Below, one piece after another: positions 1,569 through 55,754 of a stretch of DNA of 64,000 nt. The stretch is from Clostridiaceae bacterium. GTDB taxonomy: Bacteria > Bacillota > Clostridia > Lachnospirales > Lachnospiraceae. The stretch covers positions 1 to 64,000 of the forward strand of contig CABIXM010000015.1 in the NCBI GenBank assembly GCA_902362725.1, written 5' to 3'. A program made the position numbers and the translations under genes. Every line of letters starts with the position of its first letter. The first letter of the stretch is position 1. The notes under the pieces were generated by a model that did no database searches, had not been told where the DNA came from, and saw only the letters and a list, made by a program, of their open reading frames with translations.

Positions 1569-1600
1569 AAGAAAACTCCCCCTGTAATTAAATTAAATTC

Positions 1601-1611
1601 ATTGTATCACA
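1601..1611 (-). promoter_or_regulatory. Candidate extended -10 promoter of the NUDIX gene
   Basis: Minus-strand TGTGATACAAT contains TACAAT with an upstream TG, about 33 nt before the start codon. No convincing -35 hexamer is visible, so it is tentative. Confidence 0.4.
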
Positions 1612-1678
1612 GAGAGAGTTTTACTTCCAGAGCATTTCCGGAAAACCATATCAAATTTTGTAGTGCCGATTTCCGTCC

Positions 1679-2461
1679 TCAAAAGGAAAACAGCATGGCG
1701 GAAAGCCACGTCATGACGCCCGGGGGCAGTACGCCGGAGGCCGCGCGGACCAGCTTCATGCTGCCGCCGCAGACGGACACGGCCTTGCCTTTTTCCGCGT
1801 CAAATAGGGCCTTCCGTACCACACGCTCGGGCTTTATCAGGAACAGGCGCTTGACCGGGTTCAGCTTGATGCCGCCGGTAGCGAAGAAATCGGTCTTCAC
1901 CGGGCCCGGACACACGGCGGTCACGGAGATCTGGCGGCTGCGCAGCTCTTCCTTCAGCGCTCTCGACAAAGACAGCACGTAAGCCTTGCTGGCCGCGTAG
2001 GCCGCGAAGCCCGGCTGTGGCAGAAAGGCCGAACCGGAATCCAGCTGGATGATCCGGCTTCCCTTCCGGAAATACGGCAGGCAGGTCATGGTAACCGCGG
2101 TCAGCGCCCGGCAGTTGACATCGATCATATTTAAGATCTGATCCACATCCTGGGTCTCCAGCTTTCCGGCATGTCCCAGGCCTGCGGAATTCACCAGGAT
2201 CCGGATCACCGGCTTTTCCTTTTTAAGCAGAGCCGCAAGCTCTGTACAGGCGTCCTTTTCCGCCAGATCCATGGGCAGGGTCCGAATCATCGTTTTCTCC
2301 TTCAGCTCATCCTGCAGTTCCAGTAGAGCCTGCTCTCTTCTTGCGATCACCCAGATTTCCGATATGGAGCGGTAGCTTTCCGCTATCTGGCGGACGAACT
2401 CCCGGCCCATGCCGGAGGACGCTCCTGTTACGATCGCGATTGACGCTCTCTTTTTCTCCAT
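1679..2461 (-). CDS. Short-chain dehydrogenase/reductase (SDR)
   Basis: A 260-residue classical SDR. The TGASSGMG nucleotide-binding loop is at residues 12-19, NSAG at 91-94, the catalytic serine in LDSGSA (~142-144), Tyr155 and Lys159 in YAASK. PGPVKTDF follows, as in the DltE/YqjQ-like subgroup. The C-terminus is hydrophobic (GVMTWLSAMLFSF), which may place it at the membrane. The substrate is unknown. ATG at 2461 is preferred because GGGAGG lies 8 nt upstream; an in-frame GTG at 2470 would overlap that site. It follows a Cof-type phosphatase by 18 nt. Confidence 0.88.
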   Translation of the reverse strand: MEKKRASIAIVTGASSGMGREFVRQIAESYRSISEIWVIARREQALLELQDELKEKTMIRTLPMDLAEKDACTELAALLKKEKPVIRILVNSAGLGHAGKLETQDVDQILNMIDVNCRALTAVTMTCLPYFRKGSRIIQLDSGSAFLPQPGFAAYAASKAYVLSLSRALKEELRSRQISVTAVCPGPVKTDFFATGGIKLNPVKRLFLIKPERVVRKALFDAEKGKAVSVCGGSMKLVRAASGVLPPGVMTWLSAMLFSF

Positions 2462-2479
2462 CACTGCCACCTCCCGGTT

Positions 2480-3304
2480 TTATCCAAGCAGATATTTGTA
2501 AATGGCTTCTGCACAGCCATCGTGGTCACAGTCCGCCACGGTGACATCGGAGACCGCTTTCACAGAATCCAACGCATTTCCCATGGCCACGGCAAGGCCT
2601 GCCGTCCGAAGAACACTTAAATCATTGTCCGCATCCCCCACGGCGATGCTGGCGCTCACCGGAATGCCCAGGGCCTCGCAGAGCTTTGTAAGGCCCACGC
2701 CCTTATCGACGCCTGTGGCCGTCAGCTCCAGAGACGAGCTCTCCGCATGTACCATTTCCACGGGAAGTCCGGCTGCCAGGATACGCTCCTTGGTGCGATC
2801 CCGGGATTCCGGACTTTTGTGATACAGATTGATCTTTTCTATGGGCCATGGATTGGCCATATAGAAGCCGTATAAGTCATCGTGGGCTTCTACGGTTCTG
2901 GCATGCAGTTCCTTGTAGGGACCCATGCCATAAAGCTCAATGTGTGCCAGCTGGTTGGTCTGTTCGATGGATTTTTCATCCAGAATGTGCAGCATAGCTT
3001 CTTCCTTCCGTGCCAGGAGGAAAATTTCTTTGACAGTGGGGATATCCATGGTGTTGGAATAAATCACCCGCTGCTCCTGAAAATCGTAGACCATGGCTCC
3101 ACTGGTGCAGTTCACATAGCGTAGGCCCGGGATCAGTTCCCGGAATTCTGTCAGCTCCGGGCGACAGCGGCCGGTGGAAAGTACCACATCTTTCCCCGCG
3201 GCCAGAGCCTTTTCGATGGCCGCCTTGCAGCCAGGGCTGATTTCTTTTTTGCTGTTTAATAGGGTACCGTCCATATCCAGGGCGATCAGTTGATATTGGT
3301 TCAT
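2480..3304 (-). CDS. Cof-type HAD-IIB family phosphatase
   Basis: A 274-residue hydrolase with the HAD motif I DMDGT (nucleophile Asp10, acid/base Asp12), LSTGR motif II and the GDADND motif IV near the C-terminus. The size and the C2 cap insertion fit the Cof/YidA group, which dephosphorylates sugar phosphates, flavin precursors or pyridoxal phosphate. The specific substrate cannot be read. Start ATG follows GGAGGATCCATCT. It lies 15 nt after ygiQ and 18 nt before the SDR gene, so the three are probably cotranscribed. Confidence 0.92.
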   Translation of the reverse strand: MNQYQLIALDMDGTLLNSKKEISPGCKAAIEKALAAGKDVVLSTGRCRPELTEFRELIPGLRYVNCTSGAMVYDFQEQRVIYSNTMDIPTVKEIFLLARKEEAMLHILDEKSIEQTNQLAHIELYGMGPYKELHARTVEAHDDLYGFYMANPWPIEKINLYHKSPESRDRTKERILAAGLPVEMVHAESSSLELTATGVDKGVGLTKLCEALGIPVSASIAVGDADNDLSVLRTAGLAVAMGNALDSVKAVSDVTVADCDHDGCAEAIYKYLLG

Positions 3305-3319
3305 AGATGGATCCTCCTG

Positions 3320-5275
3320 TTATTTCTTCTTGTGTACGTTCCGAATCGTCTTCTTTTTCGCTCCGACGTTATTCCGGACATTTGTTTCCGCTTGTTTTGT
3401 ACGTCCGCCTGCTTTGTTCCCGGAACTGTTTTTTCGGAAATCGGTTTTCTGTCCGCTCCGCTCTCCGGGTCTTCCGCCCGCGGGGCGAAGCAGGCACTTG
3501 GGGCCGTAGCCGATAAGATCCCGGCGGCCGCAGCGCTCCAGGGCTTCCCGTACCAGATCCCGGTTCTTCGGATCCCGGTACTGGATCAGGGCCCGCTGCA
3601 TGGCCTTCTCATGGGGATTCTTCGGCACGTAGACCTGTTCCATGGTGCGGGGATCGAGGCCCGTGTAATACATGCAGGTGGACATGGTGGAGGGCGTCGG
3701 GTAAAAGTCCTGCACCTGCTCCGGCATGTAGCCCAGATCCCGGCAGTACTCGGCCAGCTCCACGGCCTCCTTCAGGGTCGATCCCGGATGGGAGGACATG
3801 AGGTAGGGCACCAGATACTGCTTTTTCTGTAAGGTTTCGTTCATTTTCCTATAGCGGCGGCAGAACTCCTCGTAGACACTGCGCTCCGGCTTGCCCATCT
3901 TCGACAGGACCGCGTCGGACACATGTTCGGGAGCCACTTTCAGCTGACCGCTCACATGGTACTCGCAGAGCTCCTTTAAAAAGGTCTGGTCCGGATCCGC
4001 CAGCACATAGTCAAAGCGGATACCTGAACGGATGAACACTTTTTTCACGCCGGGAACGGCCCGGAGCTTTCGAAGCAGGCTGATGTAGTCGCTGTGATCG
4101 GCCTTCAGGTTTGGACAGGGCTTCGGAAACAGGCACTGTCGTTCCGGGCAGGCTCCGGCCTTTAACTGCTTGTCGCAGGCAGGCCGCCGGAAATCCGCGG
4201 TGGGGCCGCCCACATCGTGGATATAGCCCTTGAAATCCTTATCTTTGGTCATGGCTTCCGCCTCCCGGAGCAGGGATTCATGGCTCCGGGCCTGGATGAT
4301 ACGCCCCTGATGGAAGGTCAGAGCGCAAAAACTGCAGGCTCCAAAGCAGCCCCGGCAGCTGGCCAGGCTGAATTTAATCTCTGAAAAAGCCGGGACGTCG
4401 CCTTCTGCCAGACAGGAGGGATGCACCGCCCGCTGAAAGGGCAGATCGTAGACCTCGTCCATTTCCTCCTGAGTGAGGGGCTTCGCCGGTGGATTCTGTA
4501 CGATAAACAGATGTTCGGAATACTGCTCCGCCATCCGTTTGCCGCGGATGGGATCGGCGTTCTTCTGCTGGATCCCGAAGCTTCTGGCATACAGGGTCTT
4601 ATCTGCCTTCATGCTCTCGTAATCCGGCAGGAAAATGGCGTCATAGATGTCTTCTTTATGGCTGGTCTTATAGACCGTCCCATTTACAAAGGTCAGATCC
4701 CGGACAGAGATCCCGGAATTCAACGCATCTGCTATCTCCACGATGGACCGCTCGCCCATTCCATAGGAAATGAGATCCGCGCCACTGTCCAGAAGCAGGG
4801 AGCGTTTGAAGCCGTCCGCCCAGTAGTCGTAATGGGCCATGCGTCTCAGGCTTGCCTCAATGCCTCCCAGGATGATCGGCACATGCTTATACACATGGCG
4901 GATCAGATTGCTGTAAACCATATCTGCCCGATCCGGGCGCTTTCCCATGACGCCGCCCGGTGTAAAGGCGTCGGTCTTCCGGCGCTTCTTCGACACGGAA
5001 TAGTGGTTTACCATAGAATCCATATTTCCGGAGGAGACGAGAAAGGCGAGTCTGGGTTCCCCGTAGATCTGAATGCTCTCCGGGTTCTTCCAGTCCGGCT
5101 GGGACAGAATCGCCACGCTGTAGCCGTGGCTCTCCAGCACCCGTCCGATGATGGCCGGGCCGAAGGAGGGATGATCCACGTAGGCGTCGCCGATGACGTA
5201 GACGAAATCCGGCTGCGCGATTCCCCGTTCTTCTAATTCTTCTTTTGTCGCGGGCAAAAATCCCTGCTGTCTCAT
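3320..5275 (-). CDS. ygiQ: YgiQ family radical SAM protein
   Basis: A 651-residue protein matching the YgiQ family over its length: N-terminal GDAYVDHPSFG, a radical SAM CxxxCxxC cluster site at Cys310, Cys314 and Cys317, an extra Cys-rich segment (CDKQLKAGACPERQC), and SSHPGST followed by QVQDFYPTP in the DUF3362-like C-terminal part. The tail is very basic (KKKTIRNVHKKK). The family is widespread in anaerobes, but its reaction is not established. The start follows CAGGAGTAATAC, 3 nt after the stop of the preceding HAD gene, which indicates an operon. Confidence 0.93.
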   Translation of the reverse strand: MRQQGFLPATKEELEERGIAQPDFVYVIGDAYVDHPSFGPAIIGRVLESHGYSVAILSQPDWKNPESIQIYGEPRLAFLVSSGNMDSMVNHYSVSKKRRKTDAFTPGGVMGKRPDRADMVYSNLIRHVYKHVPIILGGIEASLRRMAHYDYWADGFKRSLLLDSGADLISYGMGERSIVEIADALNSGISVRDLTFVNGTVYKTSHKEDIYDAIFLPDYESMKADKTLYARSFGIQQKNADPIRGKRMAEQYSEHLFIVQNPPAKPLTQEEMDEVYDLPFQRAVHPSCLAEGDVPAFSEIKFSLASCRGCFGACSFCALTFHQGRIIQARSHESLLREAEAMTKDKDFKGYIHDVGGPTADFRRPACDKQLKAGACPERQCLFPKPCPNLKADHSDYISLLRKLRAVPGVKKVFIRSGIRFDYVLADPDQTFLKELCEYHVSGQLKVAPEHVSDAVLSKMGKPERSVYEEFCRRYRKMNETLQKKQYLVPYLMSSHPGSTLKEAVELAEYCRDLGYMPEQVQDFYPTPSTMSTCMYYTGLDPRTMEQVYVPKNPHEKAMQRALIQYRDPKNRDLVREALERCGRRDLIGYGPKCLLRPAGGRPGERSGQKTDFRKNSSGNKAGGRTKQAETNVRNNVGAKKKTIRNVHKKK

Positions 5276-18109: not shown

Positions 18110-19768
18110 TTATAGAAGATGAATTTTCTTCAGGATCCGAACCAGCGTTCTTCCTTTGGGGAAGGCCCGCAGTTCGTCCTCGGTGATGCCGTGCAGCAGC
18201 AGGATAAAGAAGGCGTAAAGGATCACCGCCAGACCCAGGCAGAGAACCGTGGAAATCCGCACACCGATCACCTTATGGAGCGGCTGATACAGAAGCCAGA
18301 CGGCCAGCGCCATAATCAGGGAGGATACAGCCGGAATCACAAAAGTCCGTTTGATCTCCTGATGATAATCCAGATGCTTTCGAATGGCCGCGCCGTTCAG
18401 GATACACATGAGAACAGCGAAGAACATATAGGCAATGACCACACCATAGATATGGAGCCTGCCAAACTGTACCAGTCCAATCATCAGAAGCAGATGGGTC
18501 ACCAAGGCAATGACTGCATTCCGCACCGGAATCTGCATCTGGTCGATGCCCTGGAGGATACCGTTGGTCAGGGTGGACAGGCCGTAGAAAATGACGGAAG
18601 CCGAACCAATCAGAAAGAGCTTCGGCGCGATCTCATTGCTGTTCCAGGACAAAAGATCCAGGATCGGCTCACCCAGAGCCGTCAGGCCGAAGGCACTGGG
18701 GATACAGATCATCATAACCATACGGATAGCACCCTCTGTTTTCCTGCGCATCTCGTCCCAGTCGCCGGAAATCCGTGCTCTGGTGAGCGCCGGGATTGTA
18801 GACGCGGACAGGGCTGACGCTACGGCAATGGGCACATTGGTCAGAAGCTTATATTTGCCCACGTAGATGCCCCAGTAGATCTCCACCGTGCTCTTATCCG
18901 CTTTCTGCACATCCAGCATCAGATATTTGAACACGCCCTGATCCACGATGCCGCTGATATTATAGACTGCCGTGCTTAAGATAACGGGTACGATGGTCAT
19001 TATCAGAACCCGCAGGGTGCTTGCGTAGCTCTCCTGCCGACTCACATGATCCCGGCGCATACTTTTCTGGAGCACCCGGTTGTACATGAGCATAACCATA
19101 ATCAGGAACAGAAGGCCGGCCGCCGCGCCCAGGCTGGTACCCAGGGTACTTCCGGCCGCGCCGTAGATGGCTCCGCTCTTGCCGTTCGTGATGCCTGCCG
19201 CTGCATCCAGCTTCACGCCGTAAGAGAACAGATAACTGGCCGCCGCGATACTCACGATGGCGTTGACGATCTGCTCAATGATCTGGGAAATAGCCGTAGG
19301 CATCATGGTTCCCATGCCCTGGAAAAAGCCCCGGAGTACGCCCATCACCGCCATGACAAAGACCGCCAAAGCCAGCACCTTCAGGCATAGCTCACTTTCC
19401 GGCGTATTGAGAAGGGTTCCCGTAAAGAATCCTGCGCCGAAGAAGGTCAGAGCCGAACCGGCCGCGCCCACCACCAGGGCCATGTAGAGGGCTCCCTTAA
19501 AGGCCCGCCAGGAATTGCGGTATTCGCCCAGCGCCACCCTGGCCGATACCACCTTGGATACCGCCAGGGGCAGGCTGTAAGAGGATATCAATAAGATTAC
19601 ATTGTAGATCTCGTAGGCTGCGGAATAATAATCATTTCCATGGTCCGTGATGATATTGGTGACCGGCAGCCGGTAGAGAAGTCCGATGATCCGGCTCACG
19701 ATGGACGCGATAGCCAGAATGCTGCCCTGCATAATATAGTTGGATTTTGAGCTGTTTTTCTTTCCCAT
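18110..19768 (-). CDS. SpoVB/YtgP-type MOP-superfamily flippase
   Basis: 552 residues with about 14 membrane segments, starting with IMQGSILAIASIVSRIIGLLYRLP, the signature of SpoVB, YtgP and related polysaccharide or lipid II flippases. SpoVB moves cortex precursors during sporulation; YtgP/Amj/MurJ-like proteins act in vegetative growth. Which one this is cannot be told from sequence. It follows the YerB-like lipoprotein by 14 nt and is probably cotranscribed with it. Confidence 0.85.
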   Translation of the reverse strand: MGKKNSSKSNYIMQGSILAIASIVSRIIGLLYRLPVTNIITDHGNDYYSAAYEIYNVILLISSYSLPLAVSKVVSARVALGEYRNSWRAFKGALYMALVVGAAGSALTFFGAGFFTGTLLNTPESELCLKVLALAVFVMAVMGVLRGFFQGMGTMMPTAISQIIEQIVNAIVSIAAASYLFSYGVKLDAAAGITNGKSGAIYGAAGSTLGTSLGAAAGLLFLIMVMLMYNRVLQKSMRRDHVSRQESYASTLRVLIMTIVPVILSTAVYNISGIVDQGVFKYLMLDVQKADKSTVEIYWGIYVGKYKLLTNVPIAVASALSASTIPALTRARISGDWDEMRRKTEGAIRMVMMICIPSAFGLTALGEPILDLLSWNSNEIAPKLFLIGSASVIFYGLSTLTNGILQGIDQMQIPVRNAVIALVTHLLLMIGLVQFGRLHIYGVVIAYMFFAVLMCILNGAAIRKHLDYHQEIKRTFVIPAVSSLIMALAVWLLYQPLHKVIGVRISTVLCLGLAVILYAFFILLLHGITEDELRAFPKGRTLVRILKKIHLL

Positions 19769-26404: not shown

Positions 26405-27532
26405 CTACTCTGTGTAGTTTGCATAGACCGCTACATGGTCGTAGATGCACCTCCAGGCGCTGTGGGCGTCCGCTGTCACGCAGATATACTGGCGTCCGCT
26501 GTCCGACTTACTAGAGCTCACCGCGCAGTTGCCGGACTGTACCACGTAGCCGGTCTTCGCGCCGATAATTTCCCCATGGGTGTCCTTGTCTTCGATCCGC
26601 CGCAGGAACCAGTTGGAAATGGTGATGCCGTCCGGGTGCTGCTCGGTAGAAGAGGTCACATAAGTCCGGGTGTTCAGAATCTCCCGGCAAAGCTCGTTAT
26701 CCATAGCTGCTTCCATAATCACCGCCAGATCATACAGCGTACAGTAATGATTGTCGTCGTAGAGTCCCACACAGTTGGTGAAATGAGCACTGCCGGAGAG
26801 TCCCAGCTCCTGAAGCTTCTGATTCATCAGCTCCACAAAACCGTCCAGGGAACCGGAAACGTAACAGGCCAGGCCTGCCGCCGCGTCGCCTCCGGAGGGC
26901 AGGATGGTTCCATATAAGAGATCTTTTACGGTCACGGTCTCATTTTCATCGAAACCCACGGCGCTGCAATCGTGGGAATAGCTGTAGTCGGTGATCTCCC
27001 GGGTGATGGTAAAGGTGTCACTAAGATTCGACACGTGCTCCACCGCCACCAGAAGGGTCAGCACCTTGGTCATGGACGCCGGGCTGATCCGGTCGCCTGC
27101 GCCCCGCTGATACAGAACCGTACGGTTGTCCGCATCCACCAAAAGGGCCCGGGTACTGGTGACCTCGTCACTGCCCAGATAAGGAGCCGTGTCCAGACCG
27201 CTGATGGCATAATCGCCAGTTGACACATAGGGGAAACTGGTCTCTGTACCTGTATCTCCCGCAGCACCTGTGTCCGCCGGTACTGCGGCCTTCAGCTTTG
27301 TCTTCTGTGTCAGATAGATGCTCTCCACGGTTCCCTTCTCGGATTTATTGCTAATTCGCCGGACGGTCGTGACGCCAAGTACTACCACCAAAATCAGGAC
27401 CAGTCCCATACATGCAAGGACCATCGCCCGCCTGATTCTGGCCTGCCGCCGTCTTCTTCTGCGCCGCTCAGCCCGCCGTCTGGCACGCCCGCGCTCCCAT
27501 GCTTCGTCGTTCTCTTCTTCTATATTAATCAC
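26405..27532 (-). CDS. D-alanyl-D-alanine carboxypeptidase (S11, DacF-like)
   Basis: 375 residues: an extremely basic N-terminus (runs of Arg), one membrane anchor (about 36-55), a Thr/Gly-rich linker, then a penicillin-binding domain. SxxK is SMTK (Ser153, Lys156), the second motif is SGG within LPSGGDAA, and KTG is in IGAKTGY. It trims peptidoglycan pentapeptides outside the membrane. GTG 27532 is chosen since GGGAGG lies 6 nt upstream; the ATG 21 nt earlier is only 2 nt from a TATAAT and has no ribosome binding site. Confidence 0.9.
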   Translation of the reverse strand: MINIEEENDEAWERGRARRRAERRRRRRRQARIRRAMVLACMGLVLILVVVLGVTTVRRISNKSEKGTVESIYLTQKTKLKAAVPADTGAAGDTGTETSFPYVSTGDYAISGLDTAPYLGSDEVTSTRALLVDADNRTVLYQRGAGDRISPASMTKVLTLLVAVEHVSNLSDTFTITREITDYSYSHDCSAVGFDENETVTVKDLLYGTILPSGGDAAAGLACYVSGSLDGFVELMNQKLQELGLSGSAHFTNCVGLYDDNHYCTLYDLAVIMEAAMDNELCREILNTRTYVTSSTEQHPDGITISNWFLRRIEDKDTHGEIIGAKTGYVVQSGNCAVSSSKSDSGRQYICVTADAHSAWRCIYDHVAVYANYTE

Positions 27533-27555
27533 TGGGAACCTCCCATTTTCCATAT

Positions 27556-47846: not shown

Positions 47847-49559
47847 TTAAAATCGCCCGAGAGCCGTAAATGCCTGATAAAGATTCAGGGTTCCATAGCC
47901 CCAGGAACGGTTGGGATAAAGCAGGGAAGGACTTCGATCCGCACCGCGGATCAATAACTGTTTGATTTCCAGGGTGCCCATGGTCAGCCGGTTGCCACGT
48001 CCGACGCCCCATTCCAGCAAAAGGGCCGCCCCTCCGGCTGTCAGGGCTGCAGCCGCGCTGGTTCCGGTCACCGCCGTTTCCCGGTTATCCGGGCCGTATG
48101 CCGTGACGTTTACGCCGGGAGCCGCCAAATCCGGCTTGATTCTTCCGTTTCGCGTAAAGCCTCTTCCAGAATCCATATAGAGACTGCCATTTTCTGCCCG
48201 ATATGCACCCACGGTGATGGGCGTCTCTGTGTTGGACGGCTCCGTCAAGGTGATATCCGGGTTGGAATTCAGAAATTCCGTCTGAGCGCTGATAAAGCCG
48301 GTGACCGGCAGCCACAGATTGTAGACGCCGTCCACCACCCGTTCGCCGTAGACCCGGATACGCCAGATCCCCGGGGAGGGATCCGCCATGCGGATCGCAA
48401 TGAGCTGTTCCCCGCTGAAAGGATCCAGCGACTGCACATTCACATAAATTACCGTCTTTTCGAACAGGAAATCAAACATCCAGTTCTTCTGCGCCGAGGT
48501 CACCCGGGGAACCTCCTCCCCTGAAGGCGATGTGACCGATACAGAAAACACATCCGGCGTGTTGCTCCAGAGCTCCATCATCAGCCCAGTCTCCCGCTCA
48601 TCCACCCGCAGTTCCACATCCTGGTAGGGTTCCTGTTCCCGCATAACGCCATAGTAATGATGGCCCTGATTGGCCTCGTTGCCTCCTGCAATCACGATAC
48701 AGCGGCCAGCCCGGGCGCCGATGGCGTTCAGATAAGAAGATAAGGGCGAGGTGCCGGTGTGGCCGCCCATATTACTGCCGATAGCCAGACAGATGACCAG
48801 TGGAAGGCCTTCCCGCTGGGCCAGCTCCTCCAGAAAACGCACGCCCAGCATCACATCATTTTCCTGATAGGCCTCGGCTTCCGGGCTTACCAGAAAATAC
48901 TCCTTCAGATAGGACTTGGCCGGTTTCAGTTTCACCATGGCGATGGACGCCAGCGGCGCGGCTCCCACAAAGCTGTTCTCAAGGTTCTCGCTTCCACCCG
49001 CTATCGATGCCAGCCTCGTGCCGTGGCCAGAGCTGTCCAGGGAGGGCACGATTTCGTAGGGCAGCGCACTTGCCAGCGCTTCATTGATCTGTTCCCGTGT
49101 ATACACGCTCCCGTAGCCGATCCCCTCCGGTGGGGTACCGCTCTGGTCTATCTGATCCCAGATGGTCAGAATCCGGCTTTTCCCGGCGGCATCCAGAAAG
49201 CATCGGTTCCGGTAATCGATGCCCGTGTCCACAAAGCCAAGCAGAACGCCCTGTCCCCGCAGATTCAGAACCGGCTGATTCTGCAGTGCCAGAATTCCCG
49301 AAGCTTCCAGACTCTCGCTCTGCAGTGGTGTATACAAAGTAGGAAATAGCTCATACCCATATTCGTACAGCCGCTCCCTATCGGCAGTCCACTTGTTCCG
49401 GTCCGCATAAAAGACTGTATAATAATCATTGATGCGCTGCACACACACATCCGGATAAATCTCCCGGATGTCCTCCTCCCGCACGTTGGTCTGCCAGATA
49501 AAATCAGCGTAATCCTCTGATACGATTTTTTCCCGGCACTGCTCCTCTCTTTCTTCCAT
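47847..49559 (-). CDS. S8 subtilase, Csp-like (spore germination protease type)
   Basis: 570 residues, no signal peptide. The catalytic triad is intact: Asp111 in FVDTGID, His179 in [10 protein letters not shown], Ser501 in GTSAAAA, with oxyanion Asn294 in [11 protein letters not shown] ~170-residue insertion between Asn and Ser, including a beta-rich part, matches the jelly-roll domain of clostridial Csp proteases, which process the cortex hydrolase SleC in germination. The first ~100 residues fit a Csp propeptide. The role is inferred. A smaller subtilase lies directly downstream in sequence coordinates (upstream in transcription). Confidence 0.85.
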
Positions 49560-49608
49560 TTCAGACTCCGTTTTTCTTCTTTTTAAAAGCTATGCCTCGC
49601 CCACTCAA

Positions 49609-50520
49609 TCATGTCTGTTTCAGTAGTCCCGGCAGCCAGATTTCACCCCATCCCTGATGGTTCGGAGCCAAACCCAGACTGCGGCACCCTGTCCGCAGGC
49701 GGGTTTTTACCTGCTCGTTCGTAAGATGCGGTTCGCCGGATAAAAGAAGAGCCAGACTTCCGGCTGCCACTGAGGTGGCCATGGAGGTACCGGATTTCAC
49801 ACGGTAAAATCTGTTTCCCGCCCGTTCAAAATCCGCCCGGCAGGATCGGATCTCCGCCCCCGGCGCCACCGTTTCCGGCTTTCGTACCTGGGCGGACACA
49901 GGACCCCGCCCGGAATAATGGGACCTTCGGACACCCTGCACCGGAATCGCCAGTTCATCGTCGGAGGAACCCACCGTAATCACCTTCGCGCAGGTTCCCG
50001 GCACGGTAATGCTCGCCCGGGCCGGCCCCTGATTCCCAGCGGCTGCACAGATCACAAAACCCGCGTCCCAGGCCTCCTCCACTGCCTGAATAAGCTCTGT
50101 GCGCATCCTTTCCTGTGGCACTCTCCCGCCCACGGAAATATTGATAATCCGCACGTCATACTCTTTTCCATGCTCCATCAGCCAGTACAGGGCGCGAATC
50201 AAGCTTACGCTGTCCCCATTTCCCCGGCTGTCCAATATCTTCAGGGAAACAAAATGGCACCGCGGCGCAAGTCCCTGGTACCTGCCGCCGGATGCCTCTC
50301 CCGTTCCTCCGATAATTCCGCTGATGTGAGTCCCGTGACCGCAGTCATCCGCCGCGTCACTGGAATTCGTAAGGTAATTATAAGAATAAACCACCCGTCC
50401 CTTTAAGTCCGGGTGTCTGTCATTGATGCCGGAATCCACAACCGCCACGCCCACGCCCTCCCCGTAGAGGGACAGCCGATATGCCGCCTGCGCTTCGATC
50501 AGTCTTCTCACGCGATCCAT
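49609..50520 (-). CDS. S8 subtilase, compact intracellular type
   Basis: 303 residues with no signal peptide and practically no propeptide. Triad Asp29 (VVDSGIND), His62 (CGHGTHISGI) and Ser246 (SGTSMATS); oxyanion Asn163 (AAAGNQGP). It resembles intracellular subtilisins. It lies 49 nt before the Csp-like gene on the same strand, so the two are likely cotranscribed. It may act in sporulation or germination along with it; this is inference from position. GGGAG precedes the ATG. Confidence 0.88.
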   Translation of the reverse strand: MDRVRRLIEAQAAYRLSLYGEGVGVAVVDSGINDRHPDLKGRVVYSYNYLTNSSDAADDCGHGTHISGIIGGTGEASGGRYQGLAPRCHFVSLKILDSRGNGDSVSLIRALYWLMEHGKEYDVRIINISVGGRVPQERMRTELIQAVEEAWDAGFVICAAAGNQGPARASITVPGTCAKVITVGSSDDELAIPVQGVRRSHYSGRGPVSAQVRKPETVAPGAEIRSCRADFERAGNRFYRVKSGTSMATSVAAGSLALLLSGEPHLTNEQVKTRLRTGCRSLGLAPNHQGWGEIWLPGLLKQT

Positions 50521-50549: not shown

Positions 50550-51785
50550 TTATGCATCCCCGGCCCGGACTGCCAATTGAAACAGCACAAAGCCCGCTGC
50601 AAACATCACGGCCAGCATGGCCACACCAGCCCGCGAGGTGTGAAAGAGCTGCGTAGAGATGCCCATCAGCATGGTTCCCACAAAAGCAGCTCCCTTGCCG
50701 AAGATATCGAAGAAGCCAAAGAACTCTGTGGCCTTCTCCTTCGGGATAATCCTTGCGAAATAGGAGCGGGACATGGACTGAATCGCACCCTGGAATAGCG
50801 CCACCCAGACCGCCAGGAACCAGAATTCCCAAGCCTTGTCAAGTTGCAGCGCAAAAAGCACCACACCAAAATAACTGATGATGGAAGCTTGAATCAGTGT
50901 GGTATTGCGCACCGTTCGGGACAGTCTTCCGAACAGAATTGAGCAGGGAAACGCCACCACCTGGGTCAGCAGAAGCGCCAGCAAAAGATTCGTATCGCTG
51001 ATGCCCACATCCTTGCCGTAGGAAGTAGCCATATCAATGATCGTGTATACACCATCGATATAGCAGAAAAACGCCAGAAGGAAATACCAGATCTTCGGCG
51101 TCTTCCGGATCTCCACGAAGCTCTGTCCCAGACGGCGGAAGCTGTCCCGCACCAGATTCGCGGTCCGCTCCACATAATGAATCTGCTGATAGCTCTTAAG
51201 GAGCGGCAGGGTCACCAGGAACCACCAGGCTGCGTTGACCAGAAAGGCCAGAGCCATCGCCAGGGTGCCGGAGATGCCGAACGCGTCTGCCTTCAGCACG
51301 AAAATCAGACTGAATACAAAGGGAATGCAGCTTCCGATATAGCCCCAGGCATAGCCCCGGGCCGATACCTCATCCATACGATCGTCTGTGGTCACATCGC
51401 CCAGCATGGCGTCGTAAAAGACCAGGCTGGCATTGAGTCCCACCTTGGCAATCACATAGACCACCAGAAAGGCCAGCCAGGTCTTCGGAACCGCCAGGCC
51501 TGCACAGCCCAACACGCCCATCATCATGAAAAAGGTAAAGACCGGCTTTTTGAAGCCTTTGGTATCCGCGAAGCTTCCCAGCACCGGGCCGAGAACCGCT
51601 ACAATAATCGTCACCAGCGACGTGGCATAGCTGAAATACGCGGTAGAATCCGCCGCTGAGATACCACTGGCTGCCGCAATGTTCTTATAATAGATCGGTA
51701 TGATCGTGGACGCCAGCATGACAAAGGCGGAATTGCCAACGTCATAAAGGATCCAGTTTTTCTCCAGTTTTGTCATTTTTTTCAT
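50550..51785 (-). CDS. MFS transporter of the UMF1/Atg22-like family
   Basis: 411 residues with about 12 membrane segments. N-terminal KLEKNWILYDVGNSAFVML and FYDAMLGDVT, RGYAWGYIGS are typical of UMF1 (Atg22-like) permeases, whose substrates are unknown. ATG 51785 is chosen because GGGGGAGAG lies 5 nt upstream. The ATG at 51809, which overlaps the upstream stop (TAATG), is an alternative. Follows the zinc phospholipase C-like gene. Confidence 0.88.
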   Translation of the reverse strand: MKKMTKLEKNWILYDVGNSAFVMLASTIIPIYYKNIAAASGISAADSTAYFSYATSLVTIIVAVLGPVLGSFADTKGFKKPVFTFFMMMGVLGCAGLAVPKTWLAFLVVYVIAKVGLNASLVFYDAMLGDVTTDDRMDEVSARGYAWGYIGSCIPFVFSLIFVLKADAFGISGTLAMALAFLVNAAWWFLVTLPLLKSYQQIHYVERTANLVRDSFRRLGQSFVEIRKTPKIWYFLLAFFCYIDGVYTIIDMATSYGKDVGISDTNLLLALLLTQVVAFPCSILFGRLSRTVRNTTLIQASIISYFGVVLFALQLDKAWEFWFLAVWVALFQGAIQSMSRSYFARIIPKEKATEFFGFFDIFGKGAAFVGTMLMGISTQLFHTSRAGVAMLAVMFAAGFVLFQLAVRAGDA

Positions 51786-51808
51786 TCCATCTCTCCCCCG
51801 CTGCGCCA

Positions 51809-52597
51809 TTACTCAAAATCCCGGTTTAGCCGCTCATCAAGCTCTTTATCGCTTCCAATCACCCGGACATATTTTACAATTTCTTCTGCCGTCGGCTCCA
51901 CAGCCTGGTTCAGCAGACGCTCCAGCGACATGCTGCTCTCCACGCATTCCAGATTGACCTGGCCGTCCATGACAAGACCGCCCAGGCCTTTTCTCTGGCC
52001 GATGGCTGTTAAGAAGCCCTTCAGGAATTTCGCCTTGGCTTTCGCCGGGCACTGGAACAGCCGGATAGTCTTTTTAAAGCCGAGAATGCAGGCATCGATC
52101 TGGTCCGCTGTCACACCGTCCAGCACGGACGCGATGGCTTCTTCTGTGTCCAGATCCCGGACCAGATGACGGGTGCAGTTATGGGTCAGCGGATTCTTTC
52201 CATCTTCAATCATCAGCTCCCGGTCGAAATCGGTCTCGATTTCCAGATGCCCCAGTCCCCGCTCCTCCATGTAGCGTCCGATATAGGGATGACACTCGCT
52301 ATCCAGCATAAAATGACACATGAAACCGCACAGATAGGAAATCAGCACATAATTGGGCCGCTTCTGATACTGCTTTCTGGCATTTTCAAAAAAGGACAGC
52401 GCGGTCTGTCCGTGCATTTTCACGCCCAGCTGATTGATACGGTTTTTGCTGTAAGGCTTATAATAGAATAAGAGGTCCGGTCCGTGAAGGCCCAGCAGAT
52501 AGGCCGCCTTGTTTTCTTTTATCATTTCCCGTAATTCTCCGGGCAGCGCCCGATAGACTTTCTTTCCGAATATATAATGTGCGTAGGTTGCAGGCAT
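51809..52597 (-). CDS. Zinc-dependent phospholipase C family protein
   Basis: 262 residues. MPATYAHYIFGKKV start, LLGLHGPDLLFYYKPY, and CGFMCHFMLDSECHPYIG, matching the Zn_dep_PLPC domain with its His/Asp metal ligands. No signal peptide is visible, unlike secreted toxins of the broader family, so it is probably an intracellular hydrolase. The substrate is unknown. ATG 52597 follows GGAAGGG. Confidence 0.88.
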   Translation of the reverse strand: MPATYAHYIFGKKVYRALPGELREMIKENKAAYLLGLHGPDLLFYYKPYSKNRINQLGVKMHGQTALSFFENARKQYQKRPNYVLISYLCGFMCHFMLDSECHPYIGRYMEERGLGHLEIETDFDRELMIEDGKNPLTHNCTRHLVRDLDTEEAIASVLDGVTADQIDACILGFKKTIRLFQCPAKAKAKFLKGFLTAIGQRKGLGGLVMDGQVNLECVESSMSLERLLNQAVEPTAEEIVKYVRVIGSDKELDERLNRDFE

Positions 52598-52783
52598 AAG
52601 TACCCTTCCTTTCTTCTGTATCTGTATTTTGTGCCGCATACGGCACTCTTAGCTATTGTCTCACAGAATCTTCTTTCTTACAAGCGTTATCCGGGTAAAA
52701 TTTCTGTTATCTTTTCTCACACTTTTCCCCCGGCGCACATACTATGGCAATATAAAATATTTCATTTTCCTGGAGGATTTCTT
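52598..52783. promoter_or_regulatory. Divergent intergenic region before the Cys/Gly-rich gene
   Basis: 186 nt between the PLC-like gene and the Cys-rich gene. AC at 52719-52720, 17 nt, CATACTATG (52738-52746) resembles a sigma-K promoter (AC, then CATANNNTA) with one mismatch. This is the only candidate for the plus-strand gene and is tentative. TGGAGG (52771-52776) is a good ribosome binding site. Confidence 0.3.
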
Positions 52784-53047
52784 ATGAGTGATTTAACTGC
52801 TACGAACTGCGGGTGTGGTTGTGACAATGGGAACAACAGCTGCTGCAATACTCTGATTTGGCTGCTTCTTCTGACCTCCTGCTGTGGCAACGGCAATGGT
52901 TTTTTGGGCGGCAATGGCTGTGGCAATGGCTGTGGCAATGACAGCAGCTGGCTGTGGCTGATCCTGATTCTGTGCTGCTGCGGCGGCTGTGGAAACGGAC
53001 TTTTTGGTAACAACGGGTGTGGCTGCGGGAATGGATGCGGCTGTTAA
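52784..53047 (+). CDS. Cysteine/glycine/asparagine-rich small protein with two hydrophobic segments
   Basis: 87 residues, 17 of them cysteine. It is an internal duplication: each half has a hydrophobic run (TLIWLLLLTSCC; SSWLWLILILCCC) followed by a Gly/Asn/Cys tail (GNGNGFLGGNGCGNGCGN; GGCGNGLFGNNGCGCGNGCG). Similar Clostridium proteins have been labelled chorion-class high-cysteine, and it also recalls YjcZ-type spore proteins. Function unknown; a cross-linked coat or membrane role is a guess. ATG follows TGGAGG. Confidence 0.75.
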   Translation: MSDLTATNCGCGCDNGNNSCCNTLIWLLLLTSCCGNGNGFLGGNGCGNGCGNDSSWLWLILILCCCGGCGNGLFGNNGCGCGNGCGC

Positions 53048-53059
53048 TCAGCTTTTCCA

Positions 53060-53094
53060 GCGGGGAGAAACAAAGGTTTCCCCCCGCCCTTTTT
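53060..53094 (+). terminator. Terminator of the Cys-rich gene
   Basis: GCGGGGAGAAAC (53060-53071) with GTTTCCCCCCGC (53076-53087), one mismatch, 4-nt loop, then CCTTTTTG. Confidence 0.85.
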
Positions 53095-53175
53095 GTATCT
53101 GCTTTTTCTTATATTTTCGCCTGTTTCCCGCTCGTTTTTCTCAAATTCTTTCAAAAATTTGTGCAATCTGTACGC

Positions 53176-53204
53176 TTGTTTTTGGAATTCCCATATGCTA
53201 TGCT
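53176..53204 (+). promoter_or_regulatory. Candidate promoter of the 15-residue-repeat protein
   Basis: TTGTTT (53176-53181), 17-nt spacer, TATGCT (53199-53204). The transcript would begin inside the left copy of the flanking direct repeat. Confidence 0.5.
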
Positions 53205-53224
53205 CTCTATACAAAAGCGAAAGG
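53202..53224 (+). repeat. Direct repeat, left copy
   Basis: The core TCTATACAAAAG then GAAAGG recurs at 53897-53919; 21 of 23 positions agree. The left copy lies between the promoter and ribosome binding site of the repeat-protein gene. Confidence 0.85.
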
Positions 53225-53236
53225 AGGATATGCGCG

Positions 53237-53890
53237 GTGCTGGACGAAAAGGATTTGCAAATCCTGCAGTCAATGTTCCATCAAAACGAAGAACGATTCA
53301 AGACAGCTCTTGTTGAGACTGAGACCAATCTCCGTGGTGAATTCAAGACGGCTCTTGCTGAGACTGAGACCAATCTCCGTGGTGAATTCAAGACAGCTCT
53401 TGCTGAGACTGAGACCAATCTCCGTAGTGAATTCAAGACGGCTCTTGCTGAGACTGAGACCAATCTCCGTGGCGAATTCAAGACGGCTCTTGCTGAGACC
53501 GAGACCAATCTCCGTGGTGAATTCAAGACGGCTCTTGCTGAGACCGAGACCAATCTCCGTGGCGAATTCAAGACGGCTCTTGCTGAGACCGAGACCAATC
53601 TCCGTGGCGAATTCAAGACGGCTCTTGCTGAGACCGAGACTAGTCTCCGTGGCGAATTTGGCCGCATGTTAGACGAAAGAATTTCTCAGTCTGAAAATTC
53701 TGTTCTGAGTTACGTTGACTGGACTAGAGAAGAGCTGGAAAAGAAGCTTTCGGTTCTGGATGCCAAAGTAGATCAGTTATGGCAATATGGGAATCTCGTA
53801 AAACTGGAGTATCAGAATTCCGAAACATTTTTGAACATTGCCCTTGATTTGCAAAAAAGAGTTACTACTTTAGAAGCAAAAATTGCCTGA
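53237..53890 (+). CDS. Coiled-coil protein with eight tandem 15-residue repeats
   Basis: 217 residues from GTG 53237, with GGAGG 9 nt upstream. After ~20 residues (LDEKDLQILQSMFHQNEER) come eight copies of FKTALAETETNLRGE (residues 21-140). A C-terminal helical part follows (SYVDWTREELEKKLSVLDAK; LDLQKRVTTLEAKIA). Apolar residues 1, 5, 8/12 and 16 give 4-3-4-4 spacing, i.e. 15 residues per four turns, which predicts an almost straight or right-handed coiled coil. No signal, membrane segment or known domain is seen. Function unknown; a filament or scaffold is likely. Confidence 0.8.
   Translation: MLDEKDLQILQSMFHQNEERFKTALVETETNLRGEFKTALAETETNLRGEFKTALAETETNLRSEFKTALAETETNLRGEFKTALAETETNLRGEFKTALAETETNLRGEFKTALAETETNLRGEFKTALAETETSLRGEFGRMLDERISQSENSVLSYVDWTREELEKKLSVLDAKVDQLWQYGNLVKLEYQNSETFLNIALDLQKRVTTLEAKIA
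53297..53656 (+). repeat. 45-bp coding minisatellite, eight copies
   Basis: Eight in-frame 45-bp units, each beginning TTCAAGAC and joined at GAATTC. Units 6 and 7 are identical. Copies 1-4 have ACT and copies 5-8 ACC at codon 7, and copies 4 and 6-8 share GGC at codon 14. These shared differences show growth by unit duplication. Confidence 0.98.
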
Positions 53891-53896
53891 TAGCAG

Positions 53897-53919
53897 GCTA
53901 TCTATACAAAAGAGAAAGG
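53897..53919 (+). repeat. Direct repeat, right copy
   Basis: Matches 53202-53224 at 21 of 23 bases; it starts 7 nt after the stop codon of the repeat protein and runs into its terminator. Confidence 0.85.
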
Positions 53920-53950
53920 GCAGCCTGGTTGGCTGCCATAATTTTTTTAT
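53919..53950 (+). terminator. Terminator of the repeat-protein gene
   Basis: GGCAGCC (53919-53925), TGGTT, GGCTGCC (53931-53937), then ATAATTTTTTTA. Confidence 0.9.
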
Positions 53951-54004
53951 TCATACTTCTCCCCTTTTTCCATATATTTATTACAAAAAACCGGAGGCAC
54001 TCAG

Positions 54005-54409
54005 ATGAAGCCTGGTGATGAGCGCTATCGGATCCTATATGAGCTTCAGCACAAATGCAATGAACTGAATCGGAAAATTGACTCATTGATTCGTATGATG
54101 GAAATGCTGACAACTTATATGAAGTATTCCAGCATAATGACTGAAATGGCGGCTGTGCAGCCGTCTAAATCTGATTCTGATAGTGATTCTGATGACGGGC
54201 AGGTTCATTTTGATGACGCACCGGAAAGGAGTAATCATATGGAACCCAGGGAGTTTCAGAAAATTATGAATATGGCGAAGAATTCGGATCATCCGATGTC
54301 GGAGGGAGAATTTCAGGAGATTTTCAATACGCTTAAACAGGGGAAGTCAGAAGAGGAAGTGGCCCGGATGGAACAGATGGTGAAGCTGGCAAAAAGCTTC
54401 ATGAAATAA
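54005..54409 (+). CDS. Hypothetical helical protein with a Ser-Asp repeat
   Basis: 134 residues. N-terminal helix (ERYRILYELQHKCNELNRKIDSLIRMMEML), a run SKSDSDSDSDD at about 54-64, then a Met/Glu-rich helical part (EFQKIMNMAKNSDHPMSEGEFQEIF; ARMEQMVKLAKSFMK). It resembles short phage- or plasmid-like hypothetical proteins but no family was recognised. ATG follows GGAGGCACTCAG. Third gene of the plus-strand island. Confidence 0.7.
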   Translation: MKPGDERYRILYELQHKCNELNRKIDSLIRMMEMLTTYMKYSSIMTEMAAVQPSKSDSDSDSDDGQVHFDDAPERSNHMEPREFQKIMNMAKNSDHPMSEGEFQEIFNTLKQGKSEEEVARMEQMVKLAKSFMK

Positions 54410-54435
54410 GGGGCTGTAACAGCCCCTACTCTTTT
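54410..54435. terminator. Shared terminator of the island and the CLC gene
   Basis: GGGGCTG (54410-54416), TAA, CAGCCCC (54420-54426), with TACTCTTTT on the plus strand and TTATTT on the minus. Confidence 0.75.
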
Positions 54436-55754
54436 GCGTTGCGATTGATAAATTTGGTTTTCACCTTGGAATACATAATCTTCTGACTGCGGTACAGCCC
54501 ATAATATCCGGACTGCATATAGCTGATAGCGATTGCGATAAAGTAAAAGGGGGCTCCTTCGAAGCCGAACATCTCCAGACTGATAAGCAGAGAAGAAATG
54601 GGGCTGTTGGTAACGCCGCAAAATACGGCCGCCATACCGCAGGCGCCTGCCAGAGATGGGGAAATATGTAAAATCTGTCCCATCAGACAGCCGAAGGTGG
54701 CTCCCACAAAGAAGGTAGGAACAATCTCGCCGCCTTTAAAGCCGCCGGACAGCGTAATTGCCGTGAACAGGATCTTCAGTAAAAATGCCGCCCAGAATAC
54801 CTGCTGCTCTACCACGGCGCGCTCCACCACTTGCATACCGGTTCCCAGATAATCCGTGGTTCCTAAAGCAAGGGTCAGAAGGATAATCAGAGCGCCGGAC
54901 ACCAGCGGACGCACAAAGGCATTCTGAATCTTTTCCGCGAACAGTTCCTCTGTCTTATGCAGCACCACGCAGAACAGAATACTGACTGCCGCGCAGCACA
55001 GACCCAGAACCATAATCTTGAACCCGTTGACCGGATTCAGTTCCGGCAAAACGCCTAACGCGAAGCGCTCTCCGGTCAGTCCGAAATGACAGGCAACCCC
55101 ATAGGCAATATAGGACGCCACCACGCAGGGCACCAGGGCTGCGTAATGCATGATTCCCACACTGACAACCTCCATGGAGAACACCGTGGCCGCCATGGGC
55201 GTGCCAAACAGGGCGGAAAAGGCTGCGCTCATTCCGGCCATAATCATAACGCGCCGGTCATTTTCATCAATCCGCAGAATTCTGCCCAAAAAGTTTCCGA
55301 TGCTGCCTCCCAGCTGCAGAGCCGCGCCCTCGCGTCCTGCGGAGCCGCCGAACAGATGGGTCAGAATGGTGGAAATGAAGATCAGCGGCGCTGTCTTCAG
55401 TGGAATCTCACGCTCTGCGTGGATCGCGTCCAGCACCATATTGGTGCTGCTCCGCTCCTGCTTCCGCTCCCATTGATACATCCAGACAATCAGGACTCCC
55501 GCGAAGGGCAGTCCGTAGAGAATCCAGGGGTGCTCCATTCGGAAGGCAGTTGCCATAGATACGCCCTTTCCAAAGGCCGTTCCCACCAATCCCAGGGCTA
55601 TTCCAGTCAGAGCCGCGAATACCAGCCACTTAATCAGAACGACTAATCGGTTCCAGATCGTAATCCGGAACCGATTCTCAAGCTGCGGGAGAACACCCTC
55701 CCGCAGCTCTTCTGTGTTTTCAGTTTTTATCTCGTTTTGCTTCTGTTCATCCAT
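54426..55754 (-). CDS. CLC family anion transporter
   Basis: 442 residues, CLC fold. The gating-glutamate motif is GGSAGREGAALQLGG and the later filter GGFKGGEIVPTF. The first filter loop reads SSTNMVLDAI where chloride CLCs have GSGIP. A GREGA motif and a changed first loop are reported for fluoride-exporting CLC-F proteins, so fluoride export is possible; no fluoride riboswitch is seen. There is no C-terminal CBS domain. ATG overlaps the leuS stop by one nt. Confidence 0.9.
   Translation of the reverse strand: MDEQKQNEIKTENTEELREGVLPQLENRFRITIWNRLVVLIKWLVFAALTGIALGLVGTAFGKGVSMATAFRMEHPWILYGLPFAGVLIVWMYQWERKQERSSTNMVLDAIHAEREIPLKTAPLIFISTILTHLFGGSAGREGAALQLGGSIGNFLGRILRIDENDRRVMIMAGMSAAFSALFGTPMAATVFSMEVVSVGIMHYAALVPCVVASYIAYGVACHFGLTGERFALGVLPELNPVNGFKIMVLGLCCAAVSILFCVVLHKTEELFAEKIQNAFVRPLVSGALIILLTLALGTTDYLGTGMQVVERAVVEQQVFWAAFLLKILFTAITLSGGFKGGEIVPTFFVGATFGCLMGQILHISPSLAGACGMAAVFCGVTNSPISSLLISLEMFGFEGAPFYFIAIAISYMQSGYYGLYRSQKIMYSKVKTKFINRNAKE

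What the first reader, a model, noticed from the sequence alone, without database searches (positions are those of the whole stretch)
52784..54409. Plus-strand island of three low-complexity proteins
In a long minus-strand stretch, three plus-strand genes code for a 20% cysteine protein, a tandem-repeat coiled coil and a Ser-Asp-rich helical protein, each with its own terminator or leader. None has a recognised domain. Together they look like structural or coat-type material, or a recently gained cassette. This is the best candidate for an undescribed system in the window.
Basis: partly seen in the sequence, partly recalled or inferred. Interest (0 to 1): 0.7.

Follow-up and report, generated by a model that had tools for sequence, protein, structure and literature searches.

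The report
Undescribed Lachnospiraceae spore gene pair
Two of three odd plus-strand genes look like a little-studied pair of spore-building genes that tracks spore formation across a large family of gut bacteria, while the repeat-filled gene between them is a separate, lineage-specific addition.

Summary
The three plus-strand genes exist as described, but they are not one unit. Gene A (52784-53047; 87 aa, 19.5% Cys) and gene C (54005-54409; acidic, helical) are an old pair: the order PLC, A, C holds in 18 of 20 related loci, B in 0 of 20. In 200 genomes of the relatives' family, A (130 genomes) agrees with presence or absence of the spore-coat ATPase SpoIVA in 192 of 200; a widened C profile (124 genomes) agrees in 188 of 200. 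The neighbour's family, CLC, agrees in only 115 of 200. A carries a sigma-K-like box in 51 of 60 upstreams, C a sigma-E-like box in 18 of 21, matching the C. difficile rule of AC against ATA at -35 (PMC3789822, passages). Best reading: a mother-cell sporulation module. C (D plus C' in most relatives examined) is made early as an assembly factor; A is made late as a disulfide-linked Cys/Gly/Asn-rich spore-envelope protein. The sporulation link is strong; the envelope role is inferred. B (53237-53890; eight 15-aa repeats) is probably a lineage-specific insertion. No Pfam or NCBIfam model claims A or C.

The parts
52784..53047 (+). Gene A: 87-aa Cys/Gly/Asn-rich protein with conserved start MSDLTATNCGCGC and two hydrophobic segments; homologues are named 'chorion class high-cysteine HCB protein 13'
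   Evidence: in 130 of 200 family genomes
52718..52746 (+). sigma-K-like box of A: CAC (52718-52720), 17 nt, CATACTATG (52738-52746)
   Evidence: the pattern is in 51 of 60 A upstreams, 0.34 expected after shuffling
53237..53890 (+). Gene B: 217-aa coiled-coil protein, GTG start, eight 15-aa repeats; lineage-specific
53186..53919 (+). imperfect 39-nt direct repeat flanking B (53186-53224 and 53881-53919, 77% identical)
   Evidence: the core 18-mer occurs twice in the window, 0.09 expected
53919..53937 (+). terminator-like hairpin after B
53951..53979 (+). sigma-E-like box of C: TCATA (53951-53955), 15 nt, CATATATTT (53971-53979)
   Evidence: pattern in 18 of 21 C upstreams, 0.19 expected; the same stretch also scores 9 of 12 as sigma-70-like, 1 such site against 3.0 expected in the region
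54005..54409 (+). Gene C: 134 aa, long N-terminal helix, acidic linker, helical C-terminal domain shared with the C' proteins of relatives
54409..54427 (.). terminator-like hairpin between C and CLC, readable on both strands

Best explanation
A and C are mother-cell sporulation genes of the Lachnospiraceae. C (in most relatives examined an adjacent pair, D then C') is transcribed early by sigma-E and serves as a small helical assembly or scaffold factor. A is transcribed late by sigma-K and is laid down in an outer spore layer, where its high Cys content, Gly/Asn-rich spacers and two hydrophobic segments let it aggregate and become disulfide-crosslinked, doing the kind of work that CotY/CotZ/ExsY and CdeC do in other spore-formers. 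Shown here by computation: conservation of the pair, near-exact co-occurrence with SpoIVA, and two distinct promoter-box types. Inferred: use of these sigma factors in this organism, place in the spore envelope, crosslinking, and the scaffold role of C. B is a separate repeat protein inserted between them in this lineage.
For: PLC-A-C order in 18 of 20 loci, with CLC beyond C in 17 of those 18. A in 130 of 200 genomes, SpoIVA over cut-off in 132; both 127, A alone 3, SpoIVA alone 5, neither 65, P=1.5e-42. Widened C profile in 124 of 200: 122/2/10/66 with SpoIVA; without the 33 genomes whose loci gave rows, 89/2/10/66. Control family CLC: 117 of 200, concordant in 115, P=0.17. With the first C profile, 29 of 31 hits lie downstream of A on the same strand within 5 kb although 28 of the 31 have E-values of only 4e-7 to 8e-4. 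Boxes: A sigma-K-like 51 of 60, C sigma-E-like 18 of 21, D 20 of 36, SpoIVA 5 of 12; crossed: 3 of 60 for A, 0 for C, D and SpoIVA. Three DpaA-like genes of the family, a sigma-K gene in C. difficile, match the A-type pattern, 3 of 3. A family: median Cys 18.5%, Gly+Asn 37.5%, Lys+Arg 0 (59 sequences). Cys-rich proteins build exosporium or crust in other spore-formers (PMC6101409, passages).
Against: No expression, localisation or mutant data. Shared ancestry inflates the co-occurrence P values; I could not map losses on a tree. The box patterns were written after seeing upstreams, the shuffles keep base counts only, and the sequences are related (L017 and L114 are the same stretch). Only 5 of 12 SpoIVA controls match the sigma-E pattern. 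The DpaA-like controls score below the curated cut-off (174-195 bits against 319.65). In the window the C box also reads as a sigma-70-like site. Five SpoIVA genomes lack A and ten lack C. A in L004 and L005 was not found. A's model is too poor to use (pLDDT 45). Two hydrophobic segments also fit a membrane protein.
Confidence: 0.6

Rival explanations
1. A is a small two-helix membrane protein of the mother cell or outer forespore membrane, tied to germination or cortex proteases rather than to coat building.
For: Two hydrophobic runs in 58 of 59 family members; helices predicted there at low confidence. A subtilase like the window's S8a lies within 8 kb of A in 24 of 40 loci, and a CspC-like one directly beside A in five (counted by eye); Csp proteases act in C. 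difficile germination and their operon is sigma-E-dependent (PMC3789822, passages).
Against: Almost no Lys or Arg to orient a membrane helix (median 0); 13-24% Cys; subtilase upstreams show neither box (1 of 24 each); no random-locus control was run for the subtilase neighbourhood.
Confidence: 0.2
2. A is a metal-binding or redox-buffer protein (metallothionein-like) of sporulating cells.
For: 13-24% Cys.
Against: Long hydrophobic runs and Gly/Asn spacers; its Cys lie mostly as CC, CG and GCG around these runs, unlike the recalled spaced metallothionein motifs.
Confidence: 0.07
3. A is the precursor of a modified peptide (RiPP) cut by the nearby subtilase.
For: Short Cys-rich protein with an invariant start and a subtilase nearby in many loci.
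Against: Near-exact co-occurrence with SpoIVA; both halves are conserved, not just a leader. I did not search the 40 loci for modification enzymes.
Confidence: 0.04
4. The three genes are one recently gained cassette of low-complexity proteins.
For: They share a strand in a mostly minus-strand stretch; B is flanked by an imperfect direct repeat. One faecal record labelled Bacteriophage sp. (MT839318.1, 4383 bases, UNVERIFIED) carries a subtilase, A, D and C' together.
Against: A and C are old and conserved without B. No relative of B in viral contigs or phage records. The faecal record shows the same gene order as bacterial genomes and may be host DNA; I did not look for phage genes in it.
Confidence: 0.02

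Closest known systems
'Chorion class high-cysteine HCB protein 13' (database name of A's homologues)
   Same: A is homologous to bacterial proteins so named, e.g. P0108 52% and P0150 60% identity.
   Different: The name points to insect egg-shell proteins; 'chorion class high-cysteine' occurs in one held paper, on Bombyx. No NCBIfam model stands behind it.
CotY/CotZ (B. subtilis crust) and ExsY (B. anthracis exosporium)
   Same: Cys-rich spore-surface proteins that assemble with strong disulfide crosslinking (PMC6101409, passages).
   Different: No Pfam or NCBIfam model matched A; A is short with two hydrophobic runs.
CdeC and CdeM (C. difficile exosporium)
   Same: Very Cys-rich, no known domain (9% and 8.7% Cys); morphogenetic for the exosporium (PMC6101409, passages).
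   Different: 405 and 161 aa against 87; reported absent from the Lachnospiraceae examined there (same passages). Not aligned here.
YjcZ-type tiny sporulation proteins of Bacillus (recalled, no call)
   Same: Recalled as small, Gly-rich, with one hydrophobic segment.
   Different: No Pfam or NCBIfam match of A; A has two such segments and high Cys.

Membership tests
Bacterial 'HCB protein 13' group | Sequence homology with the invariant start MS-L-ATNCG and two W/I/L runs each followed by Cys/Gly/Asn | tested here: met
Sporulation gene of the Lachnospiraceae | Present where sporulation genes are, absent where they are not | tested here: met
   A concordant with SpoIVA in 192 of 200, C in 188 of 200; CLC control 115 of 200
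Mother-cell (sigma-E/sigma-K) regulon | Promoter boxes of the two types | tested here: met
   rule from PMC3789822 passages; DpaA-like control 3 of 3, SpoIVA control only 5 of 12
Mother-cell (sigma-E/sigma-K) regulon | Transcription lost in sigE or sigK mutants | not testable with these tools
   needs expression data
CotY/CotZ/ExsY family | Match to a curated family model | tested here: not met
   0 Pfam and 0 NCBIfam families for A at E<=1; that the libraries hold a CotZ model is recalled
CdeC/CdeM | Sequence homology | not tested
   paper reports them absent from Lachnospiraceae examined (PMC6101409 passages)
Spore coat or exosporium protein | Found in the spore envelope | not testable with these tools
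   needs spore proteomics
Phage-borne or mobile gene (B) | Relatives in phage records or viral contigs | tested here: not met
   no relative of B in viral contigs or phages; short weak PHROG matches only

The most novel reading that the evidence does not exclude
The Lachnospiraceae, a large spore-forming family of the gut, build an outer spore layer from a family-specific system: a very Cys-rich, almost uncharged protein (A) polymerised late on a sigma-E-made helical scaffold (D-C', reduced or fused to C in the window's lineage). It would stand in for CotY/CotZ/ExsY and CdeC and would be a new spore-envelope system, not just a new coat protein.
Probability: 0.4. Interest if true: 0.75.

Novelty: new variant of a known kind. 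Interest (0 to 1): 0.6.

Why it matters
Spores carry strict gut anaerobes between hosts, yet my searches found little on the outer layers of Lachnospiraceae spores. The Cys-rich morphogenetic proteins CdeC and CdeM were reported absent from the Lachnospiraceae examined (PMC6101409, passages), so what plays their part is open. A and C give two concrete, testable candidates, and both could serve as sequence markers of spore formation in this family (agreement with SpoIVA 192 and 188 of 200).

Tried and rejected
Recent cassette: rejected for A and C. Phage origin of the region: the blastn search of 51500-55500 gave 6 faecal records labelled Bacteriophage sp.; by position four match the CLC gene, one the MFS gene and one, MT839318.1, gene A. 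That record (4383 bases, UNVERIFIED, no annotation) holds a subtilase, A, D and C'; I take it as likely host DNA but cannot exclude a phage carrying the module. MT836571.1 showed only CLC among the window's genes. B: no viral or phage relative; PHROG hits are short, E 4e-5 or weaker. Weak Pfam hits of B and C below curated cut-offs (Mitofilin, EFHB EF-hand and others) and one at its threshold for a C' protein (PF19937, 25.3 bits against 25) were set aside as coiled-coil or chance. C as a fusion of D's tail with C': profile comparison gave probability 3.5%, P=0.012, only suggestive. The first A-box search was mis-spaced; respaced, the box without mismatch occurs once in each of 3 genomes, at A, and the 2-mismatch hits are near the backward control. 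YabG as sigma-K control failed: 0 of 30 over the cut-off. Subtilase upstreams: 1 of 24 for each box (one search was a faulty first version that kept 1 sequence). Fold search with the C model: one match, E 7.6; PDB sequences: best E 0.35. Class-wide A hits: 9 of 196, eight of them at E 6e-7 to 8e-4; by eye several of these are shorter Cys/Gly/Asn proteins without the MSDLxATNC start. Papers: 'chorion class high-cysteine' 1, insect; 'Lachnospiraceae, spore coat, cysteine-rich' 1, the CdeC/CdeM paper; 'spore proteom' with 'Lachnospiraceae' 0; listings gave no study of A or C by title. C and D have no name to search by. PMC3789822, PMC6101409 and PMC8340488 were seen in passages only.

Full report
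What is there. Between a minus-strand PLC-like gene and a minus-strand CLC gene lie three plus-strand ORFs: A 52784-53047, B 53237-53890 (GTG start with AAAGGAGG ahead) and C 54005-54409. A has 87 residues with 19.5% Cys, 25.3% Gly and 16.1% Asn. B has eight 15-residue repeats in a 45-bp array with 96% matches. C has 134 residues. No Pfam or NCBIfam model reaches its curated cut-off on any of them.

Two histories, not one. The one genome-contig scan, with an alignment of C, found 20 loci whose titles include Merdimonas, Merdisoma, Lachnoclostridium, Lachnospiraceae bacterium and Clostridia bacterium. PLC, A and C follow each other in 18 of 20; CLC is present in 19 of 20, and all four in 17. 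In L004 and L005 neither A nor PLC was found; L004 starts only 1.5 kb before C. B was found in 0 of 20. B itself has three protein relatives at E<=0.001, two of them close (85% and 65% identity, shorter through fewer repeats). Its relatives recur in 6 of 200 family genomes, on other contigs than A or, in G039, about 1 Mb from it; two, L160 and L165, carry their own 15-residue repeats (by eye). B is flanked by an imperfect 39-nt direct repeat, 77% identical. So B looks like a member of a scattered repeat-coil family that sits between A and C in this lineage.

A and C track sporulation. The tool does not name the groups; from the record titles I take the family of G001 (the genome of L007, Lachnoclostridium sp. 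An131) to be the Lachnospiraceae. In 200 genomes drawn from it, A was found in 130 and SpoIVA (PF09547) over its cut-off in 132: both in 127, A alone in 3, SpoIVA alone in 5, neither in 65 (P=1.5e-42). A few rows of the A alignment come from these same genomes (at least G001) and were not left out. The first C profile found 31 of 200, of which 29 lie downstream of A on its strand within 5 kb; 28 of the 31 had E-values of only 4e-7 to 8e-4, so position shows that the weak matches are real. In 40 fetched A loci iterated profiles found a relative of the C tail in 36 and a further gene, D, in 35; one of the four without a C tail, L133, ends soon after A. With those rows added the C profile found 124 of 200: 122 with SpoIVA, 2 without, 10 SpoIVA genomes without C, 66 neither; leaving out the 33 genomes whose loci gave rows, 89/2/10/66. 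A and C lie on one strand within 6 kb in 93 of 121 genomes with both; 20 have them on different contigs, 2 on opposite strands, 6 further apart. As control, the CLC family (a broad family that includes C's neighbour in the window) is in 117 of 200 and agrees with SpoIVA in 115, P=0.17. A is nearly confined to this family: class-wide, 9 of 196 genomes matched, eight weakly, against 139 with SpoIVA. Shared ancestry inflates these P values; I did not map losses on a tree.

Promoters. Upstream of A two blocks are conserved while the bases between them vary. The pattern [AC]AC-N15-17-CATAnnnT[AG] is in 51 of 60 A upstreams (0.34 expected after shuffling of bases; one pair, L017 and L114, is the same sequence). 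The pattern [GTA]CATA-N13-17-CATA is in 18 of 21 C upstreams (0.19), 20 of 36 D upstreams (0.38) and 5 of 12 SpoIVA upstreams (0.13). Crossed, the counts are 3 of 60 for A and 0 for C, D and SpoIVA. In C. difficile, sigma-E and sigma-K promoters share the -10 and differ at -35, ATA against AC, and dpaA is sigma-K-dependent (PMC3789822, passages). Three DpaA-like genes of this family match the A-type pattern, 3 of 3, though they score below the curated DpaA cut-off. I wrote the patterns after seeing upstreams and with the B. subtilis consensus recalled; the paper was read afterwards. B shows neither pattern. The stretch holding the C box also scores as a weak sigma-70-like site.

How it probably works. 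C would be made early in the mother cell and A late. The A family (59 sequences) has a median of 18.5% Cys, 37.5% Gly+Asn and no Lys or Arg at the median (at most 6), with two hydrophobic runs in 58. That suits an insoluble, disulfide-crosslinked layer; a membrane protein is the main rival. The C model has a long helix (6-50), an acidic linker and a helical C-terminal domain (mean pLDDT 68, pTM 0.30), which suits an adaptor. In 34 or more of the 40 loci the C domain is a separate small protein with D on its upstream side. The window's C may have taken its N-terminal helix from D, but the test was only suggestive (P=0.012). Envelope location, crosslinking and scaffold role are inference.

Neighbours. 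A subtilase like the window's S8a (49609-50520) lies within 8 kb of A in 24 of 40 loci, and a CspC-like one like S8b directly beside A in L108, L112, L119, L134 and L141 (counted by eye; no random-locus control). This fits a spore neighbourhood, but the subtilase upstreams showed neither box (1 of 24 each). A 4.4-kb faecal scaffold deposited as Bacteriophage sp. (MT839318.1, UNVERIFIED) holds subtilase, A, D and C' in this order; it shows the module as a unit, and is probably host DNA.

Known or new. Homologues of A carry the name 'chorion class high-cysteine HCB protein 13', which points to insect egg shells. My paper searches listed no study of the bacterial family; the library is open-access only. 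CdeC and CdeM of C. difficile were reported absent from the Lachnospiraceae examined (PMC6101409, passages). I rate it a new variant of a known kind: probable Cys-rich spore-envelope material of an undescribed family with a conserved partner.

Noticed in passing
L103-L142 (40 loci of relatives): A further small gene D (conserved ...PFD..V...L..MK..LPY....QR.....KF.EL...) lies between A and the C' gene in 35 of 40 loci and is absent from the window; no curated Pfam or NCBIfam model matches the examples scanned.
   Followed up: partly
47847-50520: Two adjacent subtilases; the longer one (47847-49559) is CspC/CspBA-like (289.5 bits, below the 1250-bit cut-off), the shorter looks catalytically intact by eye.
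   Followed up: partly
L160, L162, L165: Relatives of B's C-terminal part elsewhere in the family carry their own, different tandem repeats, 15 residues long in L160 and L165: a repeat-coil family with lineage-specific arrays.
   Followed up: partly
53186-53224 and 53881-53919: Imperfect 39-nt direct repeat on both sides of B, a possible trace of its insertion.
   Followed up: partly
L153, L155, L156, L158: Outside the family, short Cys/Gly/Asn proteins with one or two W/I/L runs but no MSDLxATNC start occur; they may be distant analogues of A.
   Followed up: no
L167 (MT839318.1), 1596-4383: An unverified faecal 'Bacteriophage sp.' scaffold carries subtilase, A, D and C' together: host DNA in a virome, or less likely a phage carrying sporulation genes.
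   Followed up: partly
between PLC and A in L001-L003, L006: A palindrome-like element ACAAGTAAATTTCTTGTAA stands upstream of the A box, towards PLC, seen by eye; possible operator.
   Followed up: no
18110-19768 and 26405-27553: A SpoVB-like protein (173.8 bits, cut-off 372.3) and a D-Ala-D-Ala carboxypeptidase-like protein (103.9 bits, cut-off 625) lie in the window.
   Followed up: no
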